In this document: piece after piece, positions 38,246 through 48,082 of the stretch
Numbering within the stretch: the first letter of the stretch is position 1
Layout of the letters: each line of letters opens with the position of its first letter
DNA from: Burkholderiales bacterium
Lineage (GTDB): Bacteria; Pseudomonadota; Gammaproteobacteria; Burkholderiales; Casimicrobiaceae
DNA: 61,088 nucleotides
Assembly: GCA_025981645.1 (NCBI GenBank)
Contig: JAICXH010000004.1
Location: 1 to 61,088 of the forward strand
Direction of reading: 5' to 3'
Position numbers and translations under genes: made by a program
Notes under the pieces: model-generated
What the model saw: the letters and a program-made list of their open reading frames with translations, nothing else
Databases searched by the model: none
What the model was told of the DNA's origin: nothing

Positions 38246-40381
38246 CTAGAGCATGACCCTCACGGTCGCCCCGACGAACCAGTTGCGTCCCGGAGCCGGC
38301 TCGAAATAGCGCCTGTTGCTGTCGTTGACGATCACCGAGCCCGAGTAGTTGCGATCGAACAGGTTGTTGACCCGGGCGAACGCGGTCATCGTCGTCGTGC
38401 CGATCTTCGCACCGTAGCCGACGCGCGCATTGACTGCGGTGTAGCTCGGGGCCGCGTCGGAGTTGAGTTCGTTCACGTAGAGCTTGTCAGCGTACTGCGC
38501 CTCGAGCGCCGCGTTGACGCCGACGCTGCCCTGCGGGGCCCAGGCAAGCTCGGCCCAGGCCTCGCGCGACGGAACGCCTGGCAGACGCGCACCCGCGGAG
38601 ACGGTTGCCGGAGGCGTCCCCGACACGTACGAGTCGGCGAACACTGCGCGCAACCACGTCAACGCGACGCGCCCGTGCAGCCCGTGCCCGAGCGTCGCGT
38701 CCCACAGCGCCTCGGCTCCTTGCCGATGGGTCGCGCTGGCGTTCTTGTAGGTCGTGCGTCCGCCAATCGCCTGGTCAACGACGATCTCGTTGCGCGTGTC
38801 GGTGTCGAACCACGCGAGGTTGAACCGCTGGCGCTCGTGCGACACGAACTTGGCGCCGACTTCGAACGCGCGGCTCGTCGCCGGCTGCAGCGCGAAGTTG
38901 AGCCCGGTGCCGCTATCGCGGTACGCGATCTCGGTGAACGTCGGCGTCTCGAACCCTTCACCGTAGCTCGTGTACAGATTGAGCTCGTCGGTTGCGTGGA
39001 ACACGATGCCGGCGACCGGGCTCGTGTTGCTGAAGCTGCGGTTGCCACTGTCGTTGCCGTTGGCAGCAGTGACGTAGTGATCGACTGACGCATAGCGGAC
39101 GCTGCTCGCGCGCACGCCTGCGGTCGCCGACCAGCGTGGCACAAACTCCCACTCGGCCTGAGCGAAGGCGTCGGTACCGGTCACGTCGTCGGTCTCGTCG
39201 CGCCGCAGGTCGCCCATCGCGCCGAAATTGTTGACGTAGCCGCGCCGCAACTGGTTCTGCCGGTTCCAGTCGCCGCCGAGCGTGAGCGTCAGCGGGCGTC
39301 CGAGCGCCGGGGCCCGCCATACAAGCCTCGCGCCGACGCCACCGAAGTTGCCGTCGAGATCGGTGATGCCGCCCGACGACGCGTCGCTCGAGCCGGTGAA
39401 CGCGAGGTACTGGCGCACGAGGCGCCTTCCGCCATAGGCGTCGACGTGCACATCGAGCGCATCCGACAGCGCGTGGTCGACCGCGATGCCCCCCTGCCCC
39501 TGATTGATCGTCTTGCGCGTGTCGAACAGGATCGCTGCATGGTCGACGCCGCGCGGGTCGCTCGACCACTCGGCGCGGGTCAGGCCGAGCGGATCCTCGG
39601 TCTCGGGCTGGTACTGCGTATTGCCGATCACCGTGATACGGGTCGACGAATCGACGCTCATCACGAGCTTCGCGTTGGTGAGGTCCCGCCGCGCGCGCGA
39701 GTGATCGCGATACCCGCTCGTCTGGAACTCGCTGCCGGCGACGACGTATCCAAGTCGGTCGCGGGTGCCGGAAAACTTCGTCCCCAACGTCCACTGGCCA
39801 TAGCTCCCACCGCCGCCGTTCACCGTCGCGATGGGCTCGGCCGACGGATCCTCGGTGAAGATCGAAATCACCCCTCCGGAAGCGTTGCCGTAGAGGGCGG
39901 AAAACGGGCCGCGCAGGACCTCGATGCGCTTCGCGGAGAGCAAGCTGAAACTGCCGGTCTGGCCCTGGCCGTCCGGCATCGTCGCGGGAATGCCATCCTG
40001 GTAGATGCGCACGCCGCGCACGCCGAAGGTCGCACGCGCGCCGAAGCCCCGCGAGCTGATTTGCAGGTCCTGCGCATAGTTCTGGCGATTCGCCGCGAAC
40101 ACGCCCGGGATCCGAACCAGCGACTCGGACAGATTCACCTGCGGCTCGCCATCGTGAATGGCCGCGGCGTCGATCACGTCGATCGACGCAGGAACATCGA
40201 AGATTTTCTCCGCGTGCCGCGTCGCGGTGACGGTGATCGATTCCAGCGAGCCCGCGGCGCCGGAGGTTTGTGCGGCGGCGATCCCGGAGACCAAGGCGAG
40301 CACGACGAAAACGCCCGCGAGGACGCGCGGTCGCGCCGAGTGCGGCGTGGCGCGGTGGAAAGCCGATCCTATCCGTTGCAT
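38246..40381 (-). CDS. pqqU: TonB-dependent receptor closely resembling PQQ receptor PqqU (YncD)
   Basis: The protein is about 711 residues with a signal peptide (VLALVSGIAAAQ), a plug domain and a 22-strand barrel. Stretches such as NRQNYAQDLQISSRGFG, DGIPATMPDGQGQT, EVLRGPFSALYGNASGGV, GYRDHSRA, TRKTIN and the end SVIVNDSNRRYFEPAPGRN are very close to E. coli YncD as I remember it, which imports PQQ. This is stronger than generic TonB-receptor similarity. The nearby PQQ dehydrogenase (1 kb away) supports the role; no pqq biosynthesis gene is in the window. Start 40381 or ATG 40390; no clear ribosome site. Confidence 0.8.
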   Translation of the reverse strand: MQRIGSAFHRATPHSARPRVLAGVFVVLALVSGIAAAQTSGAAGSLESITVTATRHAEKIFDVPASIDVIDAAAIHDGEPQVNLSESLVRIPGVFAANRQNYAQDLQISSRGFGARATFGVRGVRIYQDGIPATMPDGQGQTGSFSLLSAKRIEVLRGPFSALYGNASGGVISIFTEDPSAEPIATVNGGGGSYGQWTLGTKFSGTRDRLGYVVAGSEFQTSGYRDHSRARRDLTNAKLVMSVDSSTRITVIGNTQYQPETEDPLGLTRAEWSSDPRGVDHAAILFDTRKTINQGQGGIAVDHALSDALDVHVDAYGGRRLVRQYLAFTGSSDASSGGITDLDGNFGGVGARLVWRAPALGRPLTLTLGGDWNRQNQLRRGYVNNFGAMGDLRRDETDDVTGTDAFAQAEWEFVPRWSATAGVRASSVRYASVDHYVTAANGNDSGNRSFSNTSPVAGIVFHATDELNLYTSYGEGFETPTFTEIAYRDSGTGLNFALQPATSRAFEVGAKFVSHERQRFNLAWFDTDTRNEIVVDQAIGGRTTYKNASATHRQGAEALWDATLGHGLHGRVALTWLRAVFADSYVSGTPPATVSAGARLPGVPSREAWAELAWAPQGSVGVNAALEAQYADKLYVNELNSDAAPSYTAVNARVGYGAKIGTTTMTAFARVNNLFDRNYSGSVIVNDSNRRYFEPAPGRNWFVGATVRVML

Positions 40382-40669
40382 CGGACACATGGTCGAGCTG
40401 CCGGCTCGTCTACGATGCCGGCTGCGCAGCGACTTCGCGATCTCGCTGCACACGGATCCGGGAATCCGGCCCCGACACGCCGTGCTCGCTGTTCCGAAAC
40501 GATACAGCCGGAGGGCCCGAGTCCAAGGGAGACCTGGCGACAGCATGATGTCGACACGATGGCGATGATCCGGTCTCACCAGAACCTTCCGTCGCGTCCG
40601 TATGCGTGCGCCGCAATCGATCCTCCGCACCCCGCACTCGCCCCGCTGCGCAGCGCAACCCGTCTACGC

Positions 40670-42970
40670 ATGACGCAGAGGGTCTACGATGCCCGCAGGA
40701 CCCGCGCCGCGGCGAGTGTTGCCGTGATGCTCGCGGCGACAGCGTGCTGGCCATCCGGCGCACGCGCGGAAAACGCCGCCGAAGCACTCGAATTGCCCAG
40801 TGTGCAGGTGGTCGCGACCACACCCCTTCCGGGGCTCGGGGTGCCGCTTCGCGACGTCCCGGCAAACGTGCAGATCCTCGGTCAAGATACCCTCGGAGCT
40901 GGGCAGGGTCTGTCGCTTTCGCAGCTCCTCGGCGCCACCGCGGGGAGCGTCGACATCGGGTCCGGCCAGGGCAACCGGTTCCAGCAATCGCTCGATTTTC
41001 GCGGACTCACCGCATCGCCGCTGCTGGGCACTCCCGAAGGTCTGTCGGTCTTCCAGGATGGCATCCGGATCAACGAGGCGTTCGGCGATACCGTCAACTG
41101 GGACCTCCTGCCGCGCTCGGCGATTTCCAGCGTTCAGCTCATTCCGGGAACGATGCCGGCCTACGGCCTCAATACGCTCGGCGGCGCGATCGCAATCTAC
41201 ACCAAGAGCGGCGCGGCGTACCCGGGTGCGTCGGTCGATCTCTCCGGAGGATCGTTCGGGCTTCGCGACGTCGAGCTCGAAGCCGGCGGCGCGCGAGGCA
41301 AGCTGGACGGGTTCGTCACCGTACACGTCGCCGACGACTCAGGATGGGCCGAGCACAATCCTTCGCACCTCAAGCAGCTCTTCGGCAAGCTTGGCTTCCA
41401 GGACGACCGCAGCGATCTCGATGTCAGCCTTACCCTCGCCGACAACCGCCTGCAGGGAACACAGACGCTTCCACTCGCGTTTCTGGATACGCCTCGCGCA
41501 GCGTACACCTGGCCGGACGAAAACGACAATCGGCTTGAATTCCTGACTGTGAAAGGAAGCCGTTTCCTGACCGAGAATCTGCTCGTCGGCGGCAACGCGT
41601 ACTACCGTCATTTTCGGTCGATGAACCTCAGCAGCAACGTGAACGACGATTACGGCGATCCCGACGATCCGCAGGATTCTGGGTACGAGGCGCTGAACGA
41701 CCGCTCGCACATCGACCAGCGGAGTTGGGGGGCTGGGCTGCAAGTGACCTGGACCGGGACCTTCGCCGGCTTTCGACACCAGCTTGCGGCTGGTGCGGGG
41801 GGTGACTTCGGACGCACGCATTTCTACCAGGACGAGGAGCTTGCGAACTTCACCTCCGACCGCGGCATCACGGGTGCCGGCAATTACTACTCACTGACCG
41901 ACGCCGAGTTGCGCAACGCGTATACCGGGCTCTTCGCCACCGACACCGTCACGGTCTCGCCGCACTGGACGCTGACCGTCGCCGGACGATACAACTACGC
42001 GCGGGTGACCATCGCGGACCGCAGCGGCAACGCACCCGAGCTCGACGGCGAGCACTCGTTCTCACGCTTCAATCCTGCGCTCGGAATCAATTTCAATCCT
42101 TTGCCGAGCCTGACGGTCTACGGCGCGTACAGCGAGGGCATGCGCGCACCGTCGCCGATCGAGCTGACCTGCGCTGACCCGTCGGCGCCGTGCAAGCTTC
42201 CCAACGAATTTCTCGCCGATCCGCCGCTTGCGATGGTGGTCTCAAAGACCATTGAAGCGGGTGCGCGTGGCAAAGTCGACGCGTCTACGGACTGGTCGGC
42301 CGCGGTATATCGGACTGACCTCGCCAACGACATCGAATTCATCGCCGCCGGCGCCGGCTCGTCGAACGCCGGCTACTTTCAGAACGTTGGCACGACGCGC
42401 CGGCAGGGCTTCGAGCTGGGCGCCACCCGCAAAGCTGGCCCTCTGCGAATCAGCGCGCATTTCAATCATCTCGATGCGACGTTTCGCAGCCGCTTTCTCG
42501 CATCGTCGGCCGACAATTCGGACGCCGATTCCGACGGAGGGATCGTCGTGCGTCCGGGAGATCGGATCCCGGGCATCCCCGCGAACACGCTGAAGCTCGG
42601 GTTCGAATATGCCAGTGAGCCCTTCTCGTTCGGCGCCGCGATGACGGCGATATCAGGCCAGTACGCGCACGGCGACGAGAACAACGCCGATCGACGCGGC
42701 CGGATTCCCGGATACGCGGTATTCTCTCTCGACGCGAGTTACGACGCGTCGCCGAAGCTTCAGTTTTACGCCCGCATCGATAACCTGTTCGACCGGAGCT
42801 ATTACGACTTCGGCGTGCTCGGATCGAACGTATTCACGGGACCTGGCCGCAGCTTCGGGCCAGCGAACGGAGTTGCGCCGGTTTCCGATCAGTTCCGGGC
42901 GGTGGGCGCTCCGCGCAGTGCCGTCATCGGACTGCGCTATCGATTCGGCGACGGGCGGCCGGGTCGCTGA
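40670..42970 (+). CDS. TonB-dependent outer-membrane receptor
   Basis: The protein is about 766 residues: signal peptide (VAVMLAATACWPSGARA), plug (VPLRDVPANVQILGQDTL, DFRGLTASPLLGTPEGLSVFQDGIRINEAFGD, IPGTMPAYGLNTLGGAIAI) and barrel ending SAVIGLRYRFGDGRPGR. The ligand is not identifiable from sequence; it does not share the PqqU-specific blocks. It is divergent from pqqU and convergent with the heme-copper oxidase accessory gene, overlapping it by 47 bases. Copper, a siderophore-like metal complex or an organic substrate are all open. ATG 40670 fits the signal peptide; the reading frame stays open 1.2 kb upstream by chance. Confidence 0.85.
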   Translation: MTQRVYDARRTRAAASVAVMLAATACWPSGARAENAAEALELPSVQVVATTPLPGLGVPLRDVPANVQILGQDTLGAGQGLSLSQLLGATAGSVDIGSGQGNRFQQSLDFRGLTASPLLGTPEGLSVFQDGIRINEAFGDTVNWDLLPRSAISSVQLIPGTMPAYGLNTLGGAIAIYTKSGAAYPGASVDLSGGSFGLRDVELEAGGARGKLDGFVTVHVADDSGWAEHNPSHLKQLFGKLGFQDDRSDLDVSLTLADNRLQGTQTLPLAFLDTPRAAYTWPDENDNRLEFLTVKGSRFLTENLLVGGNAYYRHFRSMNLSSNVNDDYGDPDDPQDSGYEALNDRSHIDQRSWGAGLQVTWTGTFAGFRHQLAAGAGGDFGRTHFYQDEELANFTSDRGITGAGNYYSLTDAELRNAYTGLFATDTVTVSPHWTLTVAGRYNYARVTIADRSGNAPELDGEHSFSRFNPALGINFNPLPSLTVYGAYSEGMRAPSPIELTCADPSAPCKLPNEFLADPPLAMVVSKTIEAGARGKVDASTDWSAAVYRTDLANDIEFIAAGAGSSNAGYFQNVGTTRRQGFELGATRKAGPLRISAHFNHLDATFRSRFLASSADNSDADSDGGIVVRPGDRIPGIPANTLKLGFEYASEPFSFGAAMTAISGQYAHGDENNADRRGRIPGYAVFSLDASYDASPKLQFYARIDNLFDRSYYDFGVLGSNVFTGPGRSFGPANGVAPVSDQFRAVGAPRSAVIGLRYRFGDGRPGR

Positions 42971-43574
42971 GCAAGCTGGAATGCCCGAACAACGGCGTCC
43001 AGGCCGCAGCGATCCCCCACGCAATACCGGCTGCGACCAACAGCGCGCCAGTGCGCTGCTGGTCGCCCTGAAGATACGCCGAGCAGAGTCGCTCCTGCGC
43101 CGCGACGTAACCCCACCCGAATCGAAGCAGCGTCGCGATCACCTCGACATGAATCAGCGCGCGCGCGATCACCGGAACGCGTGACCACGAAATCGCGGCC
43201 ACGACACCCAGCGGGAAAACAAGCGTCGCAAACTTGAGTGCGTCCCAACCCGCATCGAGGCGGGCGGCGTCGAGGCTTCGCGGAAGCATCCACAGGAGCA
43301 TCGAGAAGCTCGCAACGATAAGGCCGGTAACTCCGCCGACGTTGCACCCGTCGACGCATCGTCGCAGGCGTCCCATTGCGCCGCCCGCGGGCGCGTCGCG
43401 CCAGGCGACGCCTAGCCACCAACCCGAAAGAGCGAGGAGTGGCATCTGAATCAGCATCTGCCCCGCCATCGTGGCTTCGAGCAGATTGCGCAGCGGGGGC
43501 GAGAACAGCGCGACCGGGAGTACCGCGCCGAAGAGTTCGCGCGGACGGTGAATCGCCGACACAATCACGCTCAT
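42924..43574 (-). CDS. Uncharacterised membrane protein of the heme-copper oxidase operon
   Basis: The protein is 216 residues with about six membrane segments (LFGAVLPVALFSPPLRNLLEATMAGQM, LIQMPLLALSGWWLGVAW, VGGVTGLIVASFSMLLWML, FATLVFPLGVVAAISW, GALLVAAGIAWGIAAAWTPLFG). It vaguely recalls the CtaG/caa3 assembly type (membrane His/Met patches), but I do not recognise the family. It overlaps the SCO gene as ATGA and closes the operon, so a role in copper delivery or assembly of the oxidase is likely. Its 3' end overlaps the convergent TonB receptor. Confidence 0.7.
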   Translation of the reverse strand: MSVIVSAIHRPRELFGAVLPVALFSPPLRNLLEATMAGQMLIQMPLLALSGWWLGVAWRDAPAGGAMGRLRRCVDGCNVGGVTGLIVASFSMLLWMLPRSLDAARLDAGWDALKFATLVFPLGVVAAISWSRVPVIARALIHVEVIATLLRFGWGYVAAQERLCSAYLQGDQQRTGALLVAAGIAWGIAAAWTPLFGHSSLLSDPAARRRIDSAVR

Positions 43575-44278
43575 CCGGCGACACCCGCTGCGCGCCCCGG
43601 ATTGCGCCCTGCTGCTACCCCTGCTGCGAGCTCGCCTGCAATCCTTGCACGCAGCCACGCCGCCGTCCGCGCAGGGTCGTCCGCGTTCAGAATGGCGGCC
43701 AGTCGTCGCCGCGGGTCGACAACCGCGATCGCCTCATTGTGAACGAAACCTCCCCGGCCGTCGGCGATCACCACCACTCCGAACGCATCGAGCCACTGGC
43801 CGACATCTGCGGCGGCGAGCGGCGCGGCCGCCTCACGTCCTGCGATCGGCGCTCCGTCACGGGCAAGAAAGGCGCGCAGGCGCGCCGCGTCATCATGCGC
43901 GGGGTCGAATGACACCGATAGCAGTCGCACCGTCCCCGCCTCGACCTCGGGCGCGAGCAACTGCGCAAGCCGCGCATCGGAGGAACCGCGTGCAACGCAG
44001 AGCGATTCGCAGCGCGTGTAGATGAAGTCGACGAGGATCCACGGCGCGCGCAGATCGGCGAGGCTCGCGACGCGGCCGTCAGCGAAACGAAGCGGCAGTC
44101 CCGGCGCGGCTTGCGGATGTGCGAGCACCGCCTCCCGTCGCGCCGATTCACGCGTGAAGGCCGTGAAGCCCCCGGTCGCCGCGTACGTGATGGCAAGGCC
44201 GGCGCCGAAGGCGACGAGGCTCGCAGCGAGCGTCGCCACGACGCCCGGCGCAAGCCGCCACGCGCGCGGGGCCAGCAC
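43571..44278 (-). CDS. SCO1/SenC-type copper chaperone
   Basis: The protein is about 235 residues from GTG 44278, three bases after the oxidase stop. One membrane anchor (GVVATLAASLVAFGAGLAITYAA) precedes a thioredoxin-like domain with the copper motif C90-ESL-C94 (DFIYTRCESLC) and a later His (GGFVHNEAIAVVDP). It probably metallates the CuA site of subunit II. No clear ribosome site is seen, so translation is probably coupled. It sits between the catalytic subunit gene and an unknown membrane protein. Confidence 0.85.
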   Translation of the reverse strand: MLAPRAWRLAPGVVATLAASLVAFGAGLAITYAATGGFTAFTRESARREAVLAHPQAAPGLPLRFADGRVASLADLRAPWILVDFIYTRCESLCVARGSSDARLAQLLAPEVEAGTVRLLSVSFDPAHDDAARLRAFLARDGAPIAGREAAAPLAAADVGQWLDAFGVVVIADGRGGFVHNEAIAVVDPRRRLAAILNADDPARTAAWLRARIAGELAAGVAAGRNPGRAAGVAG

Positions 44279-44280
44279 CG

Positions 44281-45753
44281 CTAGGCCGAGAGCGACGCTC
44301 GCGGCAGCCGCGCGAGGATCCGGCCGCCAAGGAACAGTACCGCAAGCAGCACGATCGTACCCGCGACGGCGCCCGCCTGCGCGTAGCCGATCCACGGCGC
44401 GTCATAGGATGCGAAGCGACGCGGAATGCCGTGGAAGCCGCTGTCGAGGAACACGAAGCAGAACAACACTCCGGCGATCACATAGCCCCAGAACACGACG
44501 CGATCGACGAGCGAGTTCGCGCTCTGCTCGCGCGTGCATGCGTAGAGCAGGCTTCCCAGCACCATCGGCACGACACCGAGCAACAGGTAGAAGTGGAAGT
44601 GCCCCGGCACCCAGAGCGTGTTGTGCATCACGAGATTCACGCGGATGGTTCCATCGATGATCGCCGGGATCACGCCAGCGGCCCAGCCGAACACGCCGAA
44701 CACGAGGAGGCGCAACGGCGTATCCCACTTCACCCCGCTTCGATACAGGTTGACGAGCGCTCCCCACGCGGTCACGAGAAGTACCGGAATGCCGGAGAGG
44801 TAGGAGACGATCTGGCCGGTTGCGGCCGCCCAGCGCGGCATCGCGTAGTCCATCAGGAGATGGTGGGGATAGACCGAGAGCACCAGCAGCACGACCGCCG
44901 CCCACGAGCCGAGAAAGGCACGGTTGACCTTCCACGGTCTGCCGGTGTAGCGCGGGATGATCTCGTAGACGCCGATCACCGCCATGTAGATGGTGACGTT
45001 GATGAACACGTGTCCGAAGAAGTAGATCAGGTTCTTCATCAGCAGCGCATCCAGCGCGATGCCTGGCACGTAGAGCGAAATCAGCGTCATGATCAGAACC
45101 ACCGCGCCGCCGACGATGCCGAGCACGTTCACGATGATCGCCATCGTGCTCGCGACGACGGTCGCAGGATGCGCCGGATCCACCTTGCCGGAAATGAGTT
45201 GATCGAGCCCGAGGCCGCGCGCGAGGCTGCCGTAGCGGCGGATGATCGCGAGCGCGCAGTCGGCGTAGAAAATCAGGAATCCGACTCCGATCAGCAGATA
45301 ACCAACCATGAACGCCGCCGCCGCGTTGGCGCTCCAGAGTCCCATGCTGTGCGCCGGCAGCGGGTAGAGGAAGGTCCACGCGCCCGCGAAGTCGCCGAGG
45401 CCGATCGAAAGCAGAATCAGCACCACACCGGCGAGTGAGAGTCCCATCATCGCAAGGAACGCCGACGTGGTGAGCTCGACGTAGCGGCGCAGGAAGTACC
45501 ACATCACCGCCGCGCCGGCGAGGCCTGCGGTGCCGACCATGCCGGCCCCGTGCAAGGTCAGGACCTCGTAGAAGTAGTTCGGCGGAATGCCGAGCCAGGC
45601 ACCCTGGGTCGCGCGCATCACGACCCCGGCGAGCATCATAAGCAGGAAGACCAGGATTCCGACGGCGGCATAGAGCTGGAAGGCAAACTTCGCCTTCGGT
45701 GTATCGGGCGTTACAGGCTGGGCAGGCGCAACGGATGCGGGGTAGGCAGACAT
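44281..45753 (-). CDS. B-type heme-copper oxidase-family subunit I lacking the active-site Tyr (candidate NO reductase)
   Basis: The protein is 490 residues with about twelve membrane helices, aligning by eye with Thermus ba3 subunit I. H68 (LTLHGAGM) and H387 bind the low-spin heme, H385 (WVPGHFHFYL) the high-spin heme, H248 (FFGHVFIN), H297 and H298 (YPHHLLMDY) the CuB or FeB site. The cross-linked Tyr of O2 reductases (GHPIVY, four after the first His) is N252 here. No Tyr is at the cbb3 position either. With NsrR upstream, this favours NO reduction over O2 reduction, though unusual oxidase chemistry is not excluded. AGGAG precedes ATG 45753. Confidence 0.87.
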   Translation of the reverse strand: MSAYPASVAPAQPVTPDTPKAKFAFQLYAAVGILVFLLMMLAGVVMRATQGAWLGIPPNYFYEVLTLHGAGMVGTAGLAGAAVMWYFLRRYVELTTSAFLAMMGLSLAGVVLILLSIGLGDFAGAWTFLYPLPAHSMGLWSANAAAAFMVGYLLIGVGFLIFYADCALAIIRRYGSLARGLGLDQLISGKVDPAHPATVVASTMAIIVNVLGIVGGAVVLIMTLISLYVPGIALDALLMKNLIYFFGHVFINVTIYMAVIGVYEIIPRYTGRPWKVNRAFLGSWAAVVLLVLSVYPHHLLMDYAMPRWAAATGQIVSYLSGIPVLLVTAWGALVNLYRSGVKWDTPLRLLVFGVFGWAAGVIPAIIDGTIRVNLVMHNTLWVPGHFHFYLLLGVVPMVLGSLLYACTREQSANSLVDRVVFWGYVIAGVLFCFVFLDSGFHGIPRRFASYDAPWIGYAQAGAVAGTIVLLAVLFLGGRILARLPRASLSA

Positions 45754-45766
45754 GGCGGCGTTCTCC

Positions 45767-46297
45767 TCAGGACCCGGCAACGACCTTGACGACGGCACGC
45801 ATGTTCGAATGCGCGATGCCGCAATATTCGAGGCAGAGCACCTGGTACTCGCCAGGGGTATCGAAGCGGATGCGAAGTCGGTTGACGTAGCCAGGCATCA
45901 CCTGTGCCTGCGCGACGACGTGGGTCGCATCGCGATAGAGCGCGAAACCATGATTGACGTCGGCGCTGTGCAGATCGAACTCGACCATTTTGCCGACCGG
46001 GACGGTATCGGGGACGATGTCCCAGCTCCACTGACGCGCCGTCGCCTGCACGACGACATCGGCCGGACCAACATCGCTCGCGTAGGCCCGAAGCGGCCAA
46101 TGGCGCAAGGTCCCTACCGAGATCAACACGCCTGCGACCAGCATCAGCCACACCAGCGGCCCGCGCCAGCGGTATCCGCGCGCGGCAACTGTCGCGGCGT
46201 CGGCTCGATCCGCTCCGGACTTGGCGCACACCCACAGAAACACGACCGCGACCAGCGCCATCAGTACCAATGACAATTCCCACGCGACCTGTTGCAT
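45767..46297 (-). CDS. Heme-copper oxidase-family subunit II with CuA site
   Basis: The protein is 176 residues. Two N-terminal membrane helices (WELSLVLMALVAVVFLWVC and PLVWLMLVAGVLISVGTL) precede a cupredoxin domain with conserved QWSWD (near W90). A complete CuA ligand set follows: H116, C155, C159, H163 and M166 (CLEYCGIAHSNM). It accepts electrons from a soluble cytochrome c for subunit I, which follows by 13 bases. ATG 46297 is preceded by AAGGAGG six bases away, better than the upstream in-frame ATG. nsrR lies 102 bases upstream on the same strand. Confidence 0.92.
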   Translation of the reverse strand: MQQVAWELSLVLMALVAVVFLWVCAKSGADRADAATVAARGYRWRGPLVWLMLVAGVLISVGTLRHWPLRAYASDVGPADVVVQATARQWSWDIVPDTVPVGKMVEFDLHSADVNHGFALYRDATHVVAQAQVMPGYVNRLRIRFDTPGEYQVLCLEYCGIAHSNMRAVVKVVAGS

Positions 46298-46399
46298 GAT
46301 TTCCTCCTTGATCACGAAGACGTCAAAGCGGATGCGGCTCTTGTTATCCGGTCCTTCTCCTACCCATGCCTAAGCGAGCGGTGCATCGCTTCGCACCAA

Positions 46400-46846
46400 T
46401 CACGCCGCCTGCACGATGCGCAGCGTCGCGAACCGCGTCGCGAAAGGCCGGTCCGCGACCAGATCAGCGAGCGTGTACCCCCGAAGCGCGGCGACGAAGG
46501 CATCGGCTGCCGTTGAAAGCGCGAGTTTCAGCGTGCATGGTCCCCGCAGCACGCAGCTCTGGGCCTCGCAGTCGATAATCGACAGGTCGCGCTCCATCCG
46601 CGCGACGACGTCACCGACGTTGATCCGTGTGGGCGCCCGTCCGAGGGCGATACCGCCATGACGACCCTGCGCCGTGACGAGGAACCCCTCCTTCGCGAGC
46701 AGGTGCACGACCTTGCGCAGATGCTCGTGCGAAACCCGGTAGAAGCGCGCCACCTCGCGCATCGTCACGCGTGACGGCTCGGCCGGCTTCTGAGCCAGAT
46801 AGAGGAGCACGCGAAGGGAGAGATCAGTGAAGCGGGAGAGTTGCAT
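46400..46846 (-). CDS. nsrR: NsrR-type Rrf2-family NO-sensing repressor
   Basis: The protein is 148 residues. The winged helix starts MQLSRFTDLSLRVLLYLA with D8, followed by VSHEHLRKVVHLLAKEGFLVTAQGRHGGIALG. C93, C98 and C104 have the E. coli NsrR spacing (C91, C96, C102), and GYTLADLV near the end is also NsrR-like. It binds a 4Fe-4S cluster that is destroyed by NO, releasing target promoters. A GATGT-N9-ACATC box precedes it (46865-46883). The heme-copper oxidase operon starts 102 bases downstream, on the same strand. Confidence 0.92.
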   Translation of the reverse strand: MQLSRFTDLSLRVLLYLAQKPAEPSRVTMREVARFYRVSHEHLRKVVHLLAKEGFLVTAQGRHGGIALGRAPTRINVGDVVARMERDLSIIDCEAQSCVLRGPCTLKLALSTAADAFVAALRGYTLADLVADRPFATRFATLRIVQAA

Positions 46847-46864
46847 GCGGGCGCACCGGCATTC

Positions 46865-46883
46865 GATGTGCGCATGCTACATC
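46865..46883. promoter_or_regulatory. Candidate NsrR operator upstream of nsrR
   Basis: GATGT (46865-46869), nine bases and ACATC (46879-46883) reproduce arms and spacing of the NsrR site (GATGT-ATTTnAAAT-ACATC), although the A/T-rich centre is replaced by GCGCATGCT. It lies 18 bases before the nsrR start codon and overlaps the 3' end of the MFS gene. It predicts autorepression of nsrR and, by read-through, NO-induced expression of the oxidase operon. Confidence 0.65.
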
Positions 46884-48082
46884 GTTTCAGCCGGAAGTCC
46901 AGCCCCGTCAAGGCCCACCCCCTCCGAGCGCGGGAGGAACATCACGACGACCAGTGTCACCAGCGCGGTTGCGGCCATCAGTAGCAGGAGCGCGTGGAAT
47001 CCGGCCACCTTCACGACTGGGCCGAGCGCCCATACCGCGAGCGAGCTCACGCCGAACGCGACGGTGAGGCGCATGCCCGAGACGCGCGAGCGCATCGTGT
47101 CGTCGACGTAGCGCACGATCAGCGCGTCGGTGAAGGGGATCGCACCGAAGACCGCGATCATGAAGGCGATCATCAGCGCGAACAGGCTCCAGCCCTGCGC
47201 GCCCGCTGCGACGGCGAACAGGGGGATCTGCGTCGCGACGATCGCCGCATAGAGGAGCTTCACCGGAACGCGGTCGAGCAGCGCCCCCACCGTTACCTGC
47301 GCGAGCGCACCTGCGACGTACACCGCGGCGAGGAGCGCGCCGAGCAGCGCCGGATCCTCGACGATTCCGCGGAAGCGCTCGCGCAGCAGTTCACCATTGC
47401 CGTTGGTCGTGAAGTTGAACAACAGGCTCCCCGAGATCGACGCGACGGTGATCACCGTGAACACATGGGCGAGCGCACGCCGCGGCAGCATCGACCGCGT
47501 CACCTCGCGCCGGGCGGGCGCGACGGCCTCGGGCGGGGACACCCAAACGAATGCGGCTCCGCAGACGAAGGACAGCAGTGCCGGCACCGCGAATGCCGCG
47601 CGCCATCCGGCGTACTTGACGATGAAGCCCGTCACCACGGCCGACAGCGCGACGCCAAGGTTGCCGGCGAGCCCGTTGACACCGATGACGAAACCCGGAC
47701 GCGGGGCATCGCGAACCAGCATCGGAATGCCGACCGGGTGATAGATCGCCGCGAAGGCGCCGAGCAAGGTCAGTGCCGCGGCGAGCTGCCACGCGTTGCG
47801 GGTGAACGCGACGCCAATTGCGGCGAGCCCGATGCCGAAAAAGAAGATCAGCATCATCCGCCGCCTGCCCCAGAGATCGCCGAGACGCCCTGCCGGCAGC
47901 GAGCCTATCCCAAACAGTGCGAATGCGCCGGCGCCCCAGGGCATCAGGTCCTCCCAGCGCGCGAAGCCGAACTCCGCAGCCATCGGCCCCACCGCCGAGG
48001 CGAAGATCAGCAGGAACATGTGGTCGATCGCGTGGCCCGCGTTGAGGAGCAGGCCTGCCGCGCGCGTCGGACGTCCGCTCAT
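46877..48082 (-). CDS. MFS transporter
   Basis: The protein is about 401 residues with twelve predicted membrane segments. It opens LLLNAGHAIDHMFLLIFASAVGPMAAEFG, has motif A in GRLGDLWGRRRMMLIF and the mid-protein GVNGLAGNLGVALSAVVTGFIVKYAGWRAAF. The cargo is unknown. ATG 48082 was chosen because it opens the first helix. The stop of the 2-hydroxyacid dehydrogenase gene lies eight bases before it, and the ABC-importer genes are further upstream on the same strand, so it may belong to that metabolic unit rather than to nsrR. Confidence 0.82.
   Translation of the reverse strand: MSGRPTRAAGLLLNAGHAIDHMFLLIFASAVGPMAAEFGFARWEDLMPWGAGAFALFGIGSLPAGRLGDLWGRRRMMLIFFFGIGLAAIGVAFTRNAWQLAAALTLLGAFAAIYHPVGIPMLVRDAPRPGFVIGVNGLAGNLGVALSAVVTGFIVKYAGWRAAFAVPALLSFVCGAAFVWVSPPEAVAPARREVTRSMLPRRALAHVFTVITVASISGSLLFNFTTNGNGELLRERFRGIVEDPALLGALLAAVYVAGALAQVTVGALLDRVPVKLLYAAIVATQIPLFAVAAGAQGWSLFALMIAFMIAVFGAIPFTDALIVRYVDDTMRSRVSGMRLTVAFGVSSLAVWALGPVVKVAGFHALLLLMAATALVTLVVVMFLPRSEGVGLDGAGLPAETM

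What the first reader, a model, noticed from the sequence alone, without database searches (positions are those of the whole stretch)
44281..46846. NsrR-linked CuA heme-copper enzyme without the catalytic Tyr: candidate non-canonical NO reductase
Subunit I keeps all six metal-binding His (H68, H248, H297, H298, H385, H387) in the ba3-like B-family frame, but the Tyr that cross-links to H248 in oxygen reductases is N252. I see no Tyr at the cbb3 helix-VII position. Subunit II has a full CuA set. The gene directly upstream is an NsrR with D8 and three Cys at the right spacing. Established: the His-Tyr cross-link is needed for O2 reduction, and heme-copper NO reductases lack it; NsrR controls NO detoxification. 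Inference: this operon (CuA subunit, catalytic subunit, SCO, unknown membrane protein) encodes a CuA-type NO reductase.
Basis: partly seen in the sequence, partly recalled or inferred. Interest (0 to 1): 0.88.

Follow-up and report, generated by a model that had tools for sequence, protein, structure and literature searches.

The report
Known sNOR nitric oxide reductase operon
This operon encodes sNOR, a copper-containing relative of respiratory oxidases already known from nitrifying bacteria and thought to turn nitric oxide into nitrous oxide; the example itself is ordinary, but comparing it with relatives shows nitric-oxide-type regulators on many such operons, which bears on an open dispute about what the enzyme does.

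Summary
The window carries nsrR-norS-norY-senC-orf1 (46846 to 42924, minus strand); the last four genes are the norSY-senC-orf1 cluster known as sNOR in ammonia oxidisers. NorY is 53-56% identical to NorY of Nitrosomonas and Nitrococcus and groups with them in a quick tree, outside the Tyr-bearing oxidases. In 81 of 81 aligned NorY the six His are kept and the residue four after the CuB His is Asn; it aligns with Tyr237 of Thermus ba3, and that slot is Glu in this genome's own cNorB.

What I did not find in print is family-wide regulatory evidence: an NsrR-box match of 12 or more of 14 lies upstream of norS in 10 of 80 loci against 0 of 1,794 control windows, and perfect DNR/FNR-type boxes in 5 of 80 against 0 of 1,794. 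The window's own box is weak (11 of 14). This favours NO reduction over the published rival, a high-affinity O2 oxidase. In the passages I read, sNOR activity remains a proposal. New member of a known kind.

The parts
46865..46883 (.). weak candidate NsrR box, 11 of 14 consensus positions, 18 bp before the nsrR start codon
   Evidence: 27 of 1,794 control windows of 200 bp reach the same score, so weak on its own
46400..46846 (-). nsrR, Rrf2-family regulator, 148 aa, D8 C93 C98 C104
45767..46297 (-). norS, subunit II with full CuA ligand set, 176 aa
44281..45753 (-). norY, catalytic subunit I, 490 aa, six His ligands kept, Asn in place of the cross-linking Tyr
44998..45000 (-). codon of N252, equivalent to Tyr237 of ba3
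43571..44278 (-). senC, SCO1/SenC family copper protein, C90 C94 H180 (start codon GTG inferred)
   Evidence: the three ligands in 86 of 86 aligned rows
42924..43574 (-). orf1, membrane protein of 216 aa, possibly an assembly factor
   Evidence: no Pfam match of its own

Best explanation
The operon encodes sNOR, a B-family-like heme-copper enzyme. Electrons pass, probably from cytochrome c, through CuA in NorS to the hemes of NorY, where two NO are reduced to N2O at the heme/CuB site. SenC, and perhaps Orf1, help load copper. NsrR represses the operon until NO reacts with its Fe-S cluster. Shown here: gene content and order, metal ligands, N252, tree placement, and NsrR linkage and NsrR-box enrichment over the family. 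Inferred: electron donor, substrate, repression at this locus, and the roles of SenC and Orf1.
For: Same four-gene order in the named loci: NorS in 79 of 80, SenC in 80 of 80, Orf1 in 79 of 80, the two misses at locus ends, with Nitrosomonas and Nitrococcus among them. N252 and six His in 81 of 81. The H+4 slot is Tyr in the ba3 and A-family rows shown, Glu in cNorB, Gln in L100, Asn in NorY and Thermomicrobium. The purified CuA NOR of Bacillus azotoformans has the same Tyr-to-Asn change (PMC3475470). NsrR boxes of 12 or more in 10 of 80 against 0 of 1,794, commoner where nsrR is nearby (8 of 16 against 2 of 64); changed-spacing and reversed boxes show no such excess. An nsrR-like gene in 16 of 83 loci and a formate/nitrite channel gene in 16 of 83.
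Against: PMC6967387 reports sNOR transcripts up 2.7- to 10.8-fold under O2 limitation and argues for a high-affinity O2 oxidase. Most loci have neither a strong NsrR box nor nsrR nearby. The first run of the box test, with other random windows, gave 12 of 84 against 1 of 1,525 windows and 1 of 1,680 shuffles. The window's own box is weak and precedes nsrR, not norS; the sister species lacks both there. The genome already has a cNorB, and NirK and NirS were not found, so the NO source is unclear.
Confidence: 0.75

Rival explanations
1. sNOR is a high-affinity B-type O2 oxidase used when O2 is scarce and NO is present; NO reduction is at most a side reaction.
For: Proposed for N. europaea from transcription under O2 limitation and from phylogeny (PMC6967387 passages). 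NorY keeps the six His and the CuA partner of oxidases, and Y263 equals Y248 of ba3. The DNR-type boxes cannot be told from FNR boxes, which respond to O2.
Against: No Tyr at either known cross-link slot in 81 of 81; Y295 not conserved. The ba3 K-channel positions recalled as S309 and T312 are Val here (V324 and V327 are 90% or more conserved). NsrR boxes, nsrR genes and formate/nitrite channel genes beside the cluster point to N oxides.
Confidence: 0.13
2. The enzyme reduces both NO and O2 in the cell and serves mainly as an electron sink.
For: PMC3772326 suggests sNOR as an overflow electron sink in N. oceani (passage); side reactions between NO and O2 reduction are stated for the superfamily in PMC6967387 (passage).
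Against: Loss of the Tyr in every member aligned.
Confidence: 0.1
3. At this locus nsrR is only a neighbour and does not control norSY.
For: The box precedes nsrR, and no box of 11 or more lies in the 200 bp before norS; the sister species L008 keeps norSY without nsrR there.
Against: Same strand, 102 bp apart, and the pair recurs in other arrangements in relatives.
Confidence: 0.25

Closest known systems
sNOR (norSY-senC-orf1) of Nitrosomonas, Nitrosospira, Nitrosococcus and Nitrococcus
   Same: Gene set and order; NorY 53-56% identical to the Nitrosomonas and Nitrococcus loci; Asn at the Tyr slot; CuA set.
   Different: Here nsrR lies directly upstream on the same strand, an arrangement seen in no other of the 83 loci compared; N. 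europaea has its nsrR with nirK instead (PMC4940428).
bNOR / qCuANOR of Bacillus azotoformans
   Same: CuA subunit II, Tyr-to-Asn in subunit I, linked SenC and a membrane protein (PMC3475470).
   Different: Treated as a separate family from sNOR in PMC11388526; I had no bNOR sequence to compare.
T. thermophilus ba3 oxidase
   Same: His set and Y248 (here Y263); 23% identity over 412 aa.
   Different: Tyr237 is Asn; S309 and T312 are Val.
cNOR (NorB) of the same genome
   Same: Same superfamily; an acidic or amide residue, not Tyr, at the H+4 slot.
   Different: NorB has Glu; blastp against NorY finds only short weak matches.

Membership tests
sNOR | norS-norY-senC-orf1 gene order | tested here: met
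sNOR | NorY groups with nitrifier NorY | tested here: met
   (quick tree; NorY rows one side of a branch, support 79; 81 with Thermomicrobium)
sNOR | six His kept, Asn at the Tyr slot | tested here: met
sNOR | NO reductase activity | not testable with these tools
   needs purified enzyme or mutants
ba3-type (B-family) O2 reductase | Tyr cross-linked to the CuB His | tested here: not met
   N252, 81 of 81
C-family (cbb3) O2 reductase | Tyr on helix VII in place of helix VI (slot recalled) | tested here: not met
   V291, 81 of 81
cNOR/qNOR | NorB Glu at the H+4 slot | tested here: not met
   Asn in NorY, Glu in the genome's own NorB
bNOR (qCuANOR) | groups with Bacillota bNOR | not tested
   no bNOR sequence was obtained
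NsrR | Rrf2 fold with D8 and three Cys at C-x4-C-x5-C (spacing recalled) | tested here: met
   below the NCBIfam cut-off
NsrR | operator gATGyAT-N5-ATrCATc | tested here: inconclusive
   11 of 14 in the window; strong boxes in relatives

The most novel reading that the evidence does not exclude
sNOR as a family is a dedicated, NO-induced NO reductase. Several lineages have separately put it under NO sensors (NsrR boxes, DNR-type boxes, nsrR nearby in three arrangements), and NorY has lost both the catalytic Tyr and two ba3 K-channel residues, so its proton path must be rebuilt. This would settle the published dispute in favour of NO reduction, and well beyond nitrifiers: loci labelled Gemmatimonadota, Armatimonadota, Myxococcota and Thermomicrobiota carry it.
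Probability: 0.5. Interest if true: 0.5.

Novelty: new member of a known kind. Interest (0 to 1): 0.36.

Why it matters
The papers I read name sNOR an NO reductase in nitrifiers, yet its activity is disputed, and public records call it an oxidase (for example 'cbb3-type cytochrome c oxidase subunit I' in Ruegeria and Thermomicrobium). Control by NO sensors in several lineages is a cheap, testable argument that it consumes NO and makes N2O, a greenhouse gas, in organisms whose standard annotation would miss it.

Tried and rejected
Y295, beside the CuB His pair, as a stand-in redox Tyr: rejected, Tyr in 49 and Phe in 32 of 81. A genome-wide NsrR-regulon scan with a loose box: 47 sites in 2.76 Mb, too many to use. 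Foldseek to decide A- or B-family: the NorY model (pLDDT 89, pTM 0.91) matches A-family oxidases and ba3 (rank 39) at similar TM-scores, so it does not decide. A search of solved structures with residues 55-310 of NorY found no oxidase, only one chance hit at E = 1, not followed. Orf1: no fold match with E <= 0.001; hhalign against the Thermomicrobium CtaG gave probability 7.8%; DUF1404 matches weakly in 22 of 74 relatives and CtaG in 1 of 74. A CtaG-like role is a guess. NirK and NirS: no match in this 87% complete genome. NosZ: the one model searched rang only on the CuA part of NorS; the other NosZ model was not searched.

Papers, and what I saw: PMC3475470, passages and part 1 of section 15; PMC11388526, PMC6967387, PMC1274295, PMC4940428, PMC3772326, PMC3764937 and PMC7285500, passages only; all others, search listings. 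Murali et al. 2024 (PNAS) was not held and is known to me only as cited in PMC11388526. The seven searches listed no paper that I saw to state NsrR boxes upstream of norSY, but most listed papers were not opened and the library is incomplete; nearest is the N. oceani table with NsrR (Noc2967) beside SenC-NorY-NorS (Noc2969-2971).

Full report
What is there. On the minus strand the window reads nsrR (46846-46400), norS (46297-45767), norY (45753-44281), senC (about 44278-43571) and orf1 (43574-42924). The Pfam families are Rrf2, COX2, COX1 and SCO1-SenC; orf1 has no match of its own. The window lies in a 2.76 Mb, 87% complete assembly, G000.

In an alignment of the window with the 80 named loci, the six His and N252 are invariant, 81 of 81. 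N252 is Tyr237 of T. thermophilus ba3 and the Tyr of A-family oxidases; the same slot is Glu in this genome's own cNorB, Gln in a Defluviimonas plasmid enzyme and Asn in Thermomicrobium. The cbb3 slot, placed from memory, is V291 in 81 of 81. NorS keeps the CuA ligands in 85 of 85 aligned rows, its Glu in 84, and SenC keeps two Cys and a His in 86 of 86; these rows include the window and a few near-duplicates. NsrR has D8, C93, C98 and C104.

What it is. The scan of named genomes kept 80 loci (a cap; 155 stretches encoded a relative), among them N. europaea (54%), Nitrosomonas Nm33 (56%) and Nitrococcus mobilis (55%). The genes lie in the same order and strand; NorS was found in 79 of 80, SenC in 80 and Orf1 in 79, the two misses at locus ends. 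PMC4940428 lists norSY-senC-orf1 as NE0683-86 in N. europaea. In a quick tree of 89 rows the window pairs with L008 (support 99) in a group of eight (99) among the NorY rows. These are one side of a branch (79; 81 with Thermomicrobium); ba3, the Gln enzyme and the A-family lie outside. The program warned of long branches. So it is sNOR. In a sample of the phylum, 6 of 398 genomes, the window's own counted, have a match at 1e-60.

Does it reduce NO? PMC3475470 identifies the genes of the purified B. azotoformans qCuANOR, notes the same Tyr-to-Asn change, and says that the cluster occurs in N. eutropha as sNOR. PMC11388526 counts sNOR among proposed NORs. PMC6967387 suggests a high-affinity O2 oxidase, while noting indirect evidence for NO reduction in Nitrococcus. 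The sequence evidence here favours NO: no Tyr at either known slot, Y295 not conserved, and the ba3 K-channel positions recalled as S309 and T312 are V324 and V327, though Y248 is kept as Y263. The mapping rests on an alignment at about 23% identity.

Regulation. With the NsrR consensus of PMC1274295, the best match in the 200 bp upstream of norS reaches 12 of 14 in 10 of 80 loci, against 0 of 1,794 control windows from the same loci. Boxes with spacing changed by one, and a reversed box, reach 12 in 0 of 80. An earlier run with near-duplicates kept gave 12 of 84 against 1 of 1,525 windows and 1 of 1,680 shuffles. Matches of 12 or more occur in 8 of 16 loci with nsrR nearby and in 2 of 64 without. 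Perfect DNR/FNR-type boxes occur in 5 of 80 against 0 of 1,794; these do not separate NO-sensing DNR from O2-sensing FNR. An nsrR-like gene lies within the fetched flank in 16 of 83 loci (17 in the cluster, less a distant Rrf2 gene in L046): 11 downstream on the same strand, 4 divergent upstream, and the window upstream on the same strand. In 6 of the 18 scanned the Cys spacing is not C-x4-C-x5-C. Ruegeria and Parasedimentitalea plasmids also have a divergent Rrf2 gene. A formate/nitrite channel gene lies in the flank in 16 of 83 loci, Pfam-confirmed in the 5 that I scanned, and in Ruegeria and Thermomicrobium. The N. oceani NsrR locus tag near sNOR is already in a published table.

Limits for this window. 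Its own box scores 11 of 14, a level reached by 27 of 1,794 control windows, and precedes nsrR, not norS. In the sister locus L008 the flanks align at 84% and 77%, but window 46327-46905, holding nsrR and the box, is absent (113 bp stand there instead); the nearest NsrR elsewhere in that genome is 48% identical. So nsrR was gained here or lost there.

Context. The genome has two A-family oxidases, a cNorB and narG. NirK and NirS were not found, nor NosZ with the one model searched; absence is weak at 87% completeness. The other two Rrf2 proteins over the cut-off are only 25-27% identical to this NsrR. Orf1 may be a copper-insertion factor: DUF1404 matches weakly in 22 of 74 relatives, and Thermomicrobium has a clear CtaG in its cluster, but the fold search found nothing.

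Verdict. The useful addition is the regulatory evidence across the family.

Noticed in passing
window 46327-46905 against L008 3313-3425: nsrR and its candidate box are absent from the otherwise syntenic sister locus: a gain or loss of the regulator between close species.
   Followed up: partly
window about 40235-43029 against L008 6709-6974: A plus-strand TonB-receptor-like gene beside the operon is also missing from the sister locus (the name is my reading of the sequence).
   Followed up: no
L100 3223-8826 (Defluviimonas plasmid NZ_CP156080.1): A ba3-like subunit I with Gln at the Tyr slot, beside a CuA-type subunit II, heme o synthase, SCO and a cytochrome b protein; looks like eNOR (recalled), annotated as cbb3-type oxidase.
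   Followed up: partly
L093 4998-6428 and L094 4938-6422: sNOR-like subunits of Ruegeria pomeroyi and Thermomicrobium roseum are annotated 'cbb3-type cytochrome c oxidase subunit I'.
   Followed up: yes
G000 C48:14807-16003 (L090): The same genome carries a canonical cNorB, so it has two kinds of NO reductase, plus narG on C58.
   Followed up: partly
L003, L024, L038, L006, upstream of norS: NsrR boxes of 13-14 of 14; in L003/L024 (same sequence) with no nsrR nearby.
   Followed up: yes
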